Shown: one piece after another, positions 550 through 53,935 of the stretch
How positions within the stretch are numbered: position 1 is the first letter of the stretch
Layout of the letters: each line of letters begins with the position of its first letter
DNA from: Paenibacillus sp. 37
GTDB lineage: Bacteria; Bacillota; Bacilli; Paenibacillales; Paenibacillaceae
Reading direction: 5' to 3'
Assembly: GCF_008386395.1 (NCBI RefSeq)
Contig: NZ_CP043761.1
Span: 3,968,001 to 4,032,000, forward strand
Length of the DNA stretch: 64,000 nt
The notes under the pieces: generated by a model
The model's input: only the letters and a program-made list of their open reading frames with translations
The model's database searches: none
What the model was told of the DNA's origin: nothing
Position numbers and translations under genes: made by a program

Positions 550-782
550 CTATATAAATTGAACTAAAGAATATTTACACTGGTCACTTCGATGACAGAA
601 CAACCTTCCGATCGCTGTTATCCCCAGATTTTTTTGATTCCTTCTATAAAAGGGGTAAATTCGGGGATAGCTTATGCTTCCGATGTAGCTTTCTTGCAGA
701 AAGCTTGTAGGCGAACGCTACGCTTCTTCAGGTTCTTTCTGTCCTCTCCGTTTTGTGTAAATGTTTAGTTCAATTTATATAG
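550..782. repeat. 233-bp intergenic repeat with terminal inverted repeats (family A, copy 1)
   Basis: The left end CTATATAAATTGAACTAAAG and the right end TAGTTCAATTTATATAG are inverted copies, and the inverted homology continues inward to TTTACAC/GTGTAAA. Inside are a stem TTATCCCC...GGGGATAG, a small perfect hairpin AGCTTTCT-tgc-AGAAAGCT and a GC-rich segment GGCGAACGCTACGC. No protein can be read from it. Related copies lie at 13071, 25008 and 53773. No convincing target-site duplication is visible. It fills most of the 438-bp gap between the Dabb gene and rpmE2. Confidence 0.85.
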
Positions 783-13070: not shown

Positions 13071-13284
13071 CGATTTATTACACTGGCACTCCGATGAAAG
13101 AACAACCTTCCCATCGCTGTTATCCCCAGATTTTATCGATTCACTTTTCAGAAGGAGAAATCCGGGGATAGCATATGCTTCCGATGCAGCTTTCTTTCAG
13201 AAAGCTTTTAGGCGAGCGCTTCGCTGTTTCAGGTTTTTTCTTTCCTCTCCGTTACGTGTAAATGAATCAGTTCAACTAATATAG
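13071..13284. repeat. family A intergenic repeat, copy 2 (left end shortened)
   Basis: From TTACACTGG onward it matches copy 1 in order: GAACAACCTTCC, TCGCTGTTATCCCCAGATTTT, CCGGGGATAGC, TATGCTTCCGAT, the hairpin AGCTTTCTttcAGAAAGCT, GGCGAGCGCTTCGC, CCTCTCCGTTACGTGTAAAT and a right end CAGTTCAACTAATATAG. The first 20 or so bases of the left inverted repeat are absent. It directly abuts the uxuB stop codon and lies upstream of the operon terminator, so it is transcribed as part of the 3' untranslated region. Confidence 0.85.
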
Positions 13285-13335: not shown

Positions 13336-13452
13336 AGTTCAAGCATAAGATCCTACAGCATAGGAAAAGCTTGTTATAATACGTGTTCAAAAGCAAACTT
13401 TTTAAACAACCTCTTAATACAGCTACGGTGAAAAAAGGAAGGTGATACATAT

Positions 13453-16086: not shown

Positions 16087-17157
16087 TTATTCGTTCAGCG
16101 CCAGTTTCAGAGCCTCCAAATTTTGTCTCATCACGCTGATGTAGTCCATTCCCGACGCTATCTCTTCCTCGGTAAGTCCCTCAATCGGGTTCAATACAGC
16201 CGTTTTGGCTCCCACTTCACCCGCGATCGTCTCAGACACTTTGGATGAAACCAGTGTTTCGAAGAAAATGGTCTTCACCTGATGCTCTTTTGCAAAATCA
16301 ATGACAGATGCCATCTGCGCTGCTGAAGGTTCTTGCTCAGGAGACAACCCTGCGATGGGCACCTGTTGCAATCCATATTCCTTGGCAAGGTAGCCAAATG
16401 CAGCGTGTTGTGTGATGAAATCCTTGCGTTTGCTATCCGTCACAGCCGCTTTGAAGTCCTGATCCAGTGACTCCAGTTGAGCAATGTAAGCATCTGCATT
16501 CTGCTTGAACTGTTCAGCATGTTCCGGGGAAGCCTGCGCCAGTCCTGCTTCAATATTGCGCACTTCTTTTACAGCCAATGCAGGTGACAGCCATACGTGG
16601 GGATCAAGTCCACCGTGATCGTGATCATGTCTTTCTTCTGCCTCGGCGTCATGATCGTGGTCGTGTTCTTCAGCAGTTGCTTCATCTGCATGATCGTGGT
16701 CATGCTCTGTTGCCTCTGAATCTTCATGATGGTGATCATGCTCTCCACCTTCAAGCAGGTTGATGCCCTTGCTTGCTTCCACCTGAATGAGCGAAGCGTT
16801 GCTTAGACTTCCGGTGACCTGATCCATCCATGATTCCATACCCGCACCGTTGTATACAAGCACATCCGCTTTTTCAATGCTGGCAATATCTTGTGGTGTG
16901 GGCTCCCAATCATGAGGCTCCATTCCTGCTGGAACGAGGGTTTGCACCTCTGCCAGATCACCTGCCACATTTTTGGTGAACTCGTACATCGGGTAGAAGC
17001 TGACCTGCACGTTTAATTTTGCGGTTTCCGTCTCGACTGGAACGGAAGTGCCTGTCGAAGCTGTATTTGCATCAGAAGCGGATTTTTGTCCGCAGCCTGC
17101 GACGATAAGTGTAAGACTAAACAACAATCCGAGCGTAGCTTTTTTACTGAATTTCAT
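16087..17157 (-). CDS. znuA: zinc ABC transporter substrate-binding lipoprotein
   Basis: The 356-residue lipoprotein binds Zn2+ outside the membrane for import. The signal peptide ends in the lipobox LIVAGC. A loop at about residues 140-185 is packed with His, Asp and Glu (GEHDHHHED, EEHDHDHD, RHDHDHGG), a hallmark of zinc-specific members. Ligand regions are MEPHDWEPTP, LDPHVWLSP and QHAAFGYLAKEYGL. It overlaps znuB by 14 bases. It is last in the rpmG-znuC-znuB-znuA set, which carries Zur boxes at 18909 and 18703. Confidence 0.95.
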   Translation of the reverse strand: MKFSKKATLGLLFSLTLIVAGCGQKSASDANTASTGTSVPVETETAKLNVQVSFYPMYEFTKNVAGDLAEVQTLVPAGMEPHDWEPTPQDIASIEKADVLVYNGAGMESWMDQVTGSLSNASLIQVEASKGINLLEGGEHDHHHEDSEATEHDHDHADEATAEEHDHDHDAEAEERHDHDHGGLDPHVWLSPALAVKEVRNIEAGLAQASPEHAEQFKQNADAYIAQLESLDQDFKAAVTDSKRKDFITQHAAFGYLAKEYGLQQVPIAGLSPEQEPSAAQMASVIDFAKEHQVKTIFFETLVSSKVSETIAGEVGAKTAVLNPIEGLTEEEIASGMDYISVMRQNLEALKLALNE

Positions 17158-24942: not shown

Positions 24943-25007
24943 GATGATCTCTCCTTGTGTGTGTATTGATTGTATAGAACACTTTGTTGTTTGTCCGTTC
25001 CGGCTCC

Positions 25008-25135
25008 GGATCGTTCCTTCGATCGCTGTTGTCTCCAAGTTTTTTTGATTCCATTTGCAATGGAGAAAACTCGGAGACAAAGGCGAACGCTTTGCTTCTT
25101 CAGAATCGATTCCGGGTCCTTCACTACGTGCTTAA
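25008..25135. repeat. diverged family A repeat core, copy 4
   Basis: The block shares with copy 1 the order TCGATCGCTGTTGTCTCCA, TTTTTTTGATTCC, CTCGGAGACA, AGGCGAACGCT and GCTTCTTCAG. The inner stem is kept by paired changes: TGTCTCC...GGAGACA here versus TATCCCC...GGGGATA in copy 1. The outer inverted repeats and the AGCTTTCT hairpin are gone. It lies in the 234-bp gap between deoD and pdp and is transcribed with them. Confidence 0.7.
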
Positions 25136-25176
25136 AACAAAAGTTTCGATCCACATCAATTGATTATGAATAACAA

Positions 25177-53772: not shown

Positions 53773-53862
53773 CTATATAAGTTGAATTAAAGAATATTTA
53801 CACTGGACACTCCAATGACCGAACAACCTTCCGATCGCTGTTATCTCCAATTTTTCTTAAAT
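53773..53862. repeat. family A repeat, copy 3 (left half only)
   Basis: It begins with CTATATAAGTTGAATTAAAG and continues AATATTTACACTGG, CACTCC, GAACAACCTTCCGATCGCTG and TTATCTCCA, as in copy 1, then ends where the terminator of the next operon begins. The right half and right inverted repeat are absent. Confidence 0.8.
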
Positions 53863-53870
53863 TCAATAAA

Positions 53871-53907
53871 AACAGCCCCTTTCCGTGTTCGAAGGAAAGG
53901 GGCTGTT
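53871..53907 (-). terminator. terminator of the ThuA/Gfo-Idh operon
   Basis: AACAGCCCCTTTCC and GGAAAGGGGCTGTT are perfect 14-base arms, with TTTTTATTG following on the - strand. Confidence 0.92.
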
Positions 53908-53935
53908 GGTCATGATATAAGCCATGATGGCTATC

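What the first reader, a model, noticed from the sequence alone, without database searches (positions are those of the whole stretch)
550..782. Undescribed-looking structured repeat with terminal inverted repeats, present four times
Copies at 550, 13071, 53773 and a diverged core at 25008 share the same ordered blocks. Copy 1 is bounded by inverted repeats about 28 bases long (CTATATAAATTGAACTAAA...TTTAGTTCAATTTATATAG). The interior has a stem TATCCCC/GGGGATA, a perfect AGCTTTCT/AGAAAGCT hairpin and a GC-rich arm. No protein is encoded. All four sit in short gaps between genes, and two start within a few bases of a stop codon. This fits a non-autonomous mobile element (MITE-like) whose structured RNA may have been kept as 3' untranslated sequence. 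I do not know of a named family with these blocks in Paenibacillus.
Basis: partly seen in the sequence, partly recalled or inferred. Interest (0 to 1): 0.72.

Follow-up and report, generated by a model that had tools for sequence, protein, structure and literature searches.

The report
Mobile folded repeat in Paenibacillus genomes
A folded, gene-free DNA repeat is scattered between genes in at least 150 places in this Paenibacillus genome; about half of the copies carry the ends of a known kind of jumping gene, while the folded middle part is shared by much of the bacterial family and has no match in the RNA-family library searched.

Summary
The model finds it in 120 of 148 sampled genomes of the bacterial family (13 of 19 genera); in a class-wide sample all 17 genomes with hits (of 200) are in that family. 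The MITE reading is supported for one subtype: 71 of 150 copies keep at least one end like the terminal repeats of IS630-family elements in related genomes, and junctions fit insertion at TA. Copies differ between close relatives. No IS630 endonuclease domain was found in this genome. The folded core is wider than the IS630 ends, covaries strongly (22 of 27 pairs with double changes) and has no Rfam match. Orientation follows replication (115 of 150) and, more weakly, gene direction. Folding energy and wobble pairs suggest that the RNA-relevant strand is the reverse of the one described, so '3' UTR' is not the rule. Function is inferred only: a hairpin carried in messages between co-directional genes. 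New variant of a known kind (structured MITE).

The parts
550..782 (+). Copy 1, complete A-type element
   Evidence: z -7.0
550..568 (+). Left end of copy 1, CTATATAAATTGAACTAAA, IS630-type terminal repeat (T550-A551 region holds the TA)
   Evidence: sequence; compared with IS630 loci
764..782 (+). Right end of copy 1, inverse of the left end
618..669 (+). Long hairpin of the core, TTATCCCC (618-625) / GGGGATA (663-669)
   Evidence: covariation
687..705 (+). Optional arm AGCTTTCT (687-694) / AGAAAGCT (698-705); found in 53 of 150 copies
709..725 (+). Small hairpin AGGCG (709-713) / CGCTT (721-725)
13071..13284 (+). Copy 2, A-type, left end degenerate, right end kept
   Evidence: G052 has only a remnant here
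24995..25140 (+). B-type copy (core with another outer stem, no optional arm) between deoD and the next gene; model match 24995-25125
   Evidence: orthologues
53773..53858 (+). Copy 3, left half only, followed by an intrinsic terminator at about 53871-53909

Best explanation
A large family of folded, non-coding intergenic repeats with two layers. Layer 1: A-type copies are MITEs whose ends are those of IS630-family insertion sequences; an IS630-type transposase acting in trans would cut them and insert them at TA, preferring CTAG (ends, junctions and polymorphism are shown; the action of the transposase is inferred). Layer 2: a core made of a long hairpin, a small hairpin and invariant joints, inside an outer stem with an internal loop, is conserved across the family Paenibacillaceae and also occurs without IS630 ends, with other outer stems and with or without an extra arm (shown). 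Inferred: that strand is co-transcribed and forms a branched hairpin in messages, tolerated or useful as a spacer, nuclease barrier or processing site, as proposed for bcr and REP repeats; the orientation bias arises by loss of copies in the less tolerated direction; pairing is kept partly by selection and partly by block changes that alter both arms together (conversion between copies or template switching).
For: At least 150 copies in G000; 68 of 75 genus genomes, 120 of 148 family genomes. IS630 loci with the same ends and IS630-family transposase domains. 71 of 150 copies with at least one such end, shuffled flanks 0 of 150. Presence/absence against G052, two sites fitting TA insertion. 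Copies 94-95% identical to copy 1 at unrelated places in other species. Covariation: 22 of 27 pairs with double changes in 109 copies; 10 of 35 in 20 copies of the deoD locus. Orientation 115 of 150, replication term z 3.9 and gene term z 2.4. Reverse strand folds more stably in 112 of 149 copies of unequal energy and relative to its shuffles in 101 of 150; A-C cells 45 against G-T 21.
Against: G000 and G052 have no PF13358 match. The only uninterrupted transposase read (L378, 347 aa) has a variant end (TATATAGATTGAAC); the loci with matching ends have shorter or split frames. 79 of 150 copies show no IS630 end. The empty sites are near-matches, not base-perfect, so TA duplication is fitted rather than proved. 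Many single mismatches between orthologues (18 of 48 changed pair cells went between a Watson-Crick pair and a mismatch) speak against strict selection on each copy. No expression data.
Confidence: 0.6

Rival explanations
1. Plain parasitic IS630 MITE: the fold is a by-product of palindromic ends and ancestry; covariation reflects a few source copies plus template switching or conversion, with no role at RNA level.
For: IS630 ends, decay by single mismatches, reduced and partial copies, block changes of both arms with the right-hand flank almost unchanged, few one-sided wobble intermediates.
Against: The core spans genera where 29 of 30 loci read lack the IS630 ends; joints are nearly invariant between genera; the strand asymmetries are not expected from DNA palindromes alone.
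Confidence: 0.25
2. A regulatory RNA (leader or sRNA) that spread by transposition; each copy senses a ligand or binds a protein and controls the next gene.
For: Invariant joints next to covarying stems; many copies between co-directional genes with the reverse strand in sense (86 of 104 leading-strand pairs).
Against: Copies stand beside unrelated genes (examples), in both orientations, without a clear fixed distance to start codons; arms and whole modules come and go at a fixed site; no Rfam match.
Confidence: 0.1
3. Single-strand (HUH/Y1, REP-like) mobile element, which would explain the replication bias directly.
For: Replication-linked orientation and hairpin structure.
Against: Y1_Tnp occurs in only 43 of 148 family genomes and not in copy-rich ones such as G052, G048, G001; A-type copies have IS630 ends at TA.
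Confidence: 0.02
4. A chromosome-organising signal read by the replication or segregation machinery.
For: Orientation bias with a replication term; none of the 150 model hits on the second replicon, about 11 expected by length; no match in the plasmid collection.
Against: The bias is only 77%; copies are fewer around the assumed terminus; sites are polymorphic between close relatives.
Confidence: 0.03

Closest known systems
bcr1-bcr18 repeats of the Bacillus cereus group (passages in PMC3446304; the original papers were not read)
   Same: High-copy intergenic repeats, some MITE-like (bcr1-3), some with conserved structure (bcr10, bcr18), often part of transcripts.
   Different: Here an IS630-type end and a conserved folded core are combined in one family that spans 13 genera. 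Sequence identity to bcr repeats was not tested directly.
IS630-family insertion sequences and their MITEs (family knowledge recalled; local IS630 loci)
   Same: Terminal repeat, TA with C/G flanks, small non-coding derivative.
   Different: The core is not from the transposase gene and also occurs without IS630 ends.
REP elements with RAYT/Y1 transposases (passages in PMC3733652; details recalled)
   Same: Many intergenic hairpins in one genome.
   Different: Much longer and branched; Y1_Tnp presence does not follow copy number.
Template-switch-maintained RNA hairpins (abstract and introduction of PMC8794818)
   Same: Both arms change together in a block.
   Different: There RNA genes; here a dispersed repeat in which conversion between copies is an equal alternative.

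Membership tests
IS630-family MITE (A-type copies) | Terminal inverted repeats shared with an autonomous IS630 element | tested here: met
   Six of 30 loci read have such ends on both sides; L398 left end shares 24 nt with copy L004. The locus with an uninterrupted transposase (L378) has a variant end.
IS630-family MITE (A-type copies) | Insertion at TA with TA duplication | tested here: inconclusive
   TA at both ends and C/G flanks in most of 57 rows (some copies counted on both strands, some rows from other genomes); two near-empty sites fit but neighbouring bases differ.
IS630-family MITE (A-type copies) | Short and without a transposase gene | tested here: met
   About 190-235 bp between ends; no ORF of 80 aa or more lies inside copy 1.
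IS630-family MITE (A-type copies) | Autonomous partner in the same genome (usual, not required) | tested here: not met
   No PF13358 match in G000 or G052.
IS630-family MITE, applied to all copies | IS630 ends present | tested here: not met
   79 of 150 copies show none at up to 3 mismatches.
A family of Rfam 15 | Match at the curated score | tested here: not met
   0 in the window at gathering score; four loci at a permissive threshold gave only sub-threshold matches, best E 0.071.
REP/RAYT | Companion Y1 transposase | tested here: not met
   43 of 148 genomes, absent from copy-rich genomes.
bcr repeats | Sequence homology to a bcr family | not tested
   No bcr sequence was compared.
Structured RNA under selection | Covariation beyond shuffles and slid partners | tested here: met
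   (0 of 500 shuffles for paired cells and covariation score); relatedness and block changes can contribute.
Structured RNA under selection | Transcription | not testable with these tools
   No expression data available.

The most novel reading that the evidence does not exclude
The core is an independent, Paenibacillaceae-wide structured module that has moved among different hairpin shells (IS630 ends in this clade, other outer stems elsewhere), gains and loses whole arms at a fixed site, keeps its base pairing largely by block replacement of both arms rather than stepwise compensation, and has its orientation tied to the replication fork.
Probability: 0.3. Interest if true: 0.75.

Novelty: new variant of a known kind. 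Interest (0 to 1): 0.5.

Why it matters
With at least 150 copies here and 11 to 137 in ten other-genus genomes searched in depth, the element is a sizeable part of the intergenic DNA of a common soil and plant-associated group, yet it has no Rfam entry. Its many natural replicates, including orthologous copies with matched changes in both arms, allow a direct test of whether hairpins are kept by selection on RNA or by mutations that alter both arms at once. It also gives IS630 candidates with which to test mobilisation, and a covariance model for annotation.

Tried and rejected
Rfam at gathering and permissive thresholds: nothing credible. A purely gene-driven orientation was rejected: in lagging-strand gene pairs 11 of 18 copies still follow the fork, where a pure gene effect predicts about 3 (Fisher p 2.5e-4); replication alone is not enough either (gene term z 2.4). 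A Y1/HUH partner was rejected. Plasmid and phage collections gave no blastn match; I did not check how many Paenibacillus records they hold. Pairs of copies flanking one gene (composite transposon) were looked at: the genes between looked like ordinary metabolic and transport genes (read from the translations, not by a family search). Substitution asymmetry as a strand test was weak: in paired columns G>A 5.4% and C>T 4.6%, in unpaired columns 4.6% and 6.6%. A 222-bp insertion in G000 at C1:5727318 proved to be another repeat.

Limits: searches score at most 40 (DNA) or 150 (model) candidates in one genome, so 150 is a lower bound; the two weakest of the 150 have E 1.8e-7 and 1.5e-4. The terminus was taken as 3.5 Mb, half-way from dnaA at C1:328. 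For the other genomes the origin was assumed at the contig start and rows were copied by hand from the capped lists for 15 genomes (at least one single-row genome, G058, was left out); G050 and G055 went against the trend (1 of 5, 0 of 3) and are kept in the 111 of 146. One search repeats this for seven row-rich genomes only (99 of 120). In one search some palindromic copies are counted on both strands. Alignment A2 came from 100 loci given of those fetched. A3 left out four deoD loci with an A-type piece (L312, L313, L314, L319). The model R1 was built from 27 of the 64 cores aligned, all without the optional arm, so it is biased to that form. Family and class searches used stricter filters that lose weak matches; the class list does not show how many of the 200 genomes belong to the family.

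Papers: PMC4666352, PMC3446304 and PMC3733652 were seen as found passages, PMC8794818 as outline with abstract and introduction, all others in search listings only. 'Not found in print' rests.

Full report
WHAT IS THERE. Four related elements lie on the + strand of the window: 550-782 (complete), 13071-13284 (left end degenerate), about 24995-25140 (core with another outer stem) and 53773-53858 (left half only). All are in gene gaps. A covariance model (R1, from 27 copies) gave 150 hits, again the limit, all on the chromosome; by length about 11 of 150 would be expected on the second replicon.

SPREAD. By DNA, copy 1 matches in 68 of 75 genomes of the genus. R1 matches in 120 of 148 genomes of the family, 13 of 19 genera, and 11 to 137 times in ten other-genus genomes chosen among those with hits. 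In a class-wide sample 17 of 200 genomes have hits, all 17 in the same family. Nearest named genomes, by the DeoD protein, are of the Paenibacillus amylolyticus/xylanexedens group. Plasmid and phage collections gave no blastn match.

ANATOMY. The core reads GATCGCTG, a long hairpin (TTATCCCC...GGGGATAA, TTGTCTCC...GGAGACAA and other matched versions), then AAAGGCGAACGCTTCGCTTCTTCAG with a small hairpin, closed by an outer stem and an internal loop. A-type copies add IS630-type ends; an AGCTTTCT/AGAAAGCT arm is present in 53 of 150 copies. The outer stem differs between subtypes with pairing kept (for example ACAGAACAACC/GGTTCTTTCTGT and CGGATCGTTCT/AGAATCGATTCCG). In the 30 other-genus loci read, the joints around GATCGCTG and AAAGGCGAACGCT are little changed while the outer stem differs, and only 1 of 30 shows an IS630 end. 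Sixteen stray IS630-type ends read in G000 include copies reduced to the ends or the outer hairpin, and also chance matches in genes.

MOBILITY. The IS630 endonuclease domain (PF13358) was found in 21 of 75 genus genomes; G000 and G052 have none. Of 30 loci read, six have matching ends at both sides, 1,135-1,171 bp apart; those printed have C before and G after the TA. L378 encodes an uninterrupted 347-aa IS630-family transposase but its end is a variant (TATATAGATTGAAC); L398, whose ends match best, has its frame in two pieces. In 57 rows of A-type ends, C precedes the left TA in 34 and G follows the right TA in 41. With up to three mismatches, 35 of 150 copies have both ends, 36 one, 79 none; shuffled flanks gave 0 of 150. 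A pattern search for the right end gave 56 places against 3 for the reversed pattern. Against the collinear relative G052 (mostly 91-94% identity) several copies are present in only one genome. Two sites look nearly empty in the other genome and fit TA insertion (G000 5678993, G052 5674564); others are messier, with remnants or unmatched sequence. The five B-type loci that I checked by coordinates are present in both genomes, one as three tandem copies in G000 and one in G052, so A-type copies look younger. Copies 94-95% identical to copy 1 sit at unrelated places in other genomes.

STRUCTURE. In 109 copies 94.6% of pair cells form, against 41-48% with slid partners; 22 of 27 pairs show double changes; covariation 0.263 against 0.129 in shuffles (0 of 500). 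In 20 copies of the deoD-pdp locus: 94.8%, 10 of 35 pairs with double changes, 0.151 against 0.083 (0 of 500), while the number of further pair types did not exceed shuffles (14 against 16.3). At this locus 22 of 26 clade genomes have a strong hit; L309 and L310 have only an outer hairpin; others have tandem copies, the extra arm, or an A-type piece replacing half. In 16 orthologous G000/G052 pairs (403 pair cells) 11 cells changed on both sides with pairing kept, 10 changed between Watson-Crick and G-T, 5 between Watson-Crick and A-C, 18 between Watson-Crick and a mismatch, 4 otherwise, and 1 between mismatches; paired columns differ at 8.1%, unpaired at 12.7%. Nine of the eleven double changes are in three copies. 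In the clearest case the right-hand flank is almost identical while the long hairpin changed in a block on both arms (ATCCCTGG/CCGGGGAT to ATCGTCGG/CCGACGAT), which suggests replacement in one event, by conversion from another copy or template switching (PMC8794818, abstract).

ORIENTATION AND STRAND. By my gene caller 149 of 150 copies are intergenic. Against the fork versus with it: leading-strand gene pairs 86 to 18, lagging-strand pairs 11 to 7, divergent 13 to 4, convergent 5 to 6. A logit with both terms gives replication 0.88 (z 3.9) and gene direction 0.63 (z 2.4). Leaving out one fixed T-G pair, A-C cells (wobble on the reverse strand) number 45 and G-T cells 21; in orthologue pairs the small counts go the other way (G-T 10, A-C 5). 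I take the reverse strand as the likelier RNA strand; it reads with the genes in 93 of 122 co-directional gaps.

HOW IT PROBABLY WORKS. Shown: copy number, IS630-like ends, TA junctions, polymorphism, covarying core, orientation bias. Inferred: an IS630 transposase in trans moves A-type copies; the orientation bias arises after insertion by loss of less tolerated copies; the reverse-strand transcript forms a branched hairpin in messages between genes. Whether this helps the host is open. The nearest precedent is the bcr repeats of B. cereus, about half of whose copies are in transcripts and of which bcr3 correlates with message decay (PMC3446304, passages).

VERDICT. A real, abundant, structured repeat family, unnamed within the searches made. 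The MITE layer is a new member of a known kind; the family-wide core with changeable arms, without IS630 ends in about half of the copies, makes the whole a new variant.

Noticed in passing
L184:7318-7539 (G000 C1:5727318-5727539); short similar piece at window 13383-13415: A 222-bp insertion absent from G052 with ends like GTGTTCAAAAAG / CTTTTTGAACAACC: probably a second, unrelated MITE family; a short remnant-like piece lies just after copy 2.
   Followed up: no
L189:4230-5110 (G000 C1:5824230-5825110): Three tandem B-type copies and a partial fourth, each followed by a terminator-like hairpin, directly after a long gene's stop codon; the relative G052 has one copy there.
   Followed up: partly
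L186:7170-7260 (G000 C1:5767170-5767260) and L295 near 1500: Reduced elements that keep the outer stem and internal-loop motif (CACTNYGATG / CCTCTYCGTT) with only a short loop instead of the core.
   Followed up: partly
internal loop of A- and B-type copies (window 585-596 with 740-752; 24995-25007 with 25110-25125): The two strands of the internal loop look swapped between A-type (CACTNCG left, CTCCGTT right) and B-type (CGTTCC left, CACTACG right), as if one motif were used in either direction. Seen by eye only.
   Followed up: no
G000 chromosome: Copies are sparse around the assumed terminus (2.0-4.5 Mb) and dense nearer the origin, on the 500-kb histogram.
   Followed up: no
L407, L416, L425 (G082, another genus): Copies nearly identical to each other next to or within a GGGGTATCCCAT-type hairpin, suggesting recent spread with different ends.
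   Followed up: no
window 16639-16708: Two 31-nt repeats at 77% identity inside a predicted gene (16087-17157), rich in codons that would read histidine.
   Followed up: no
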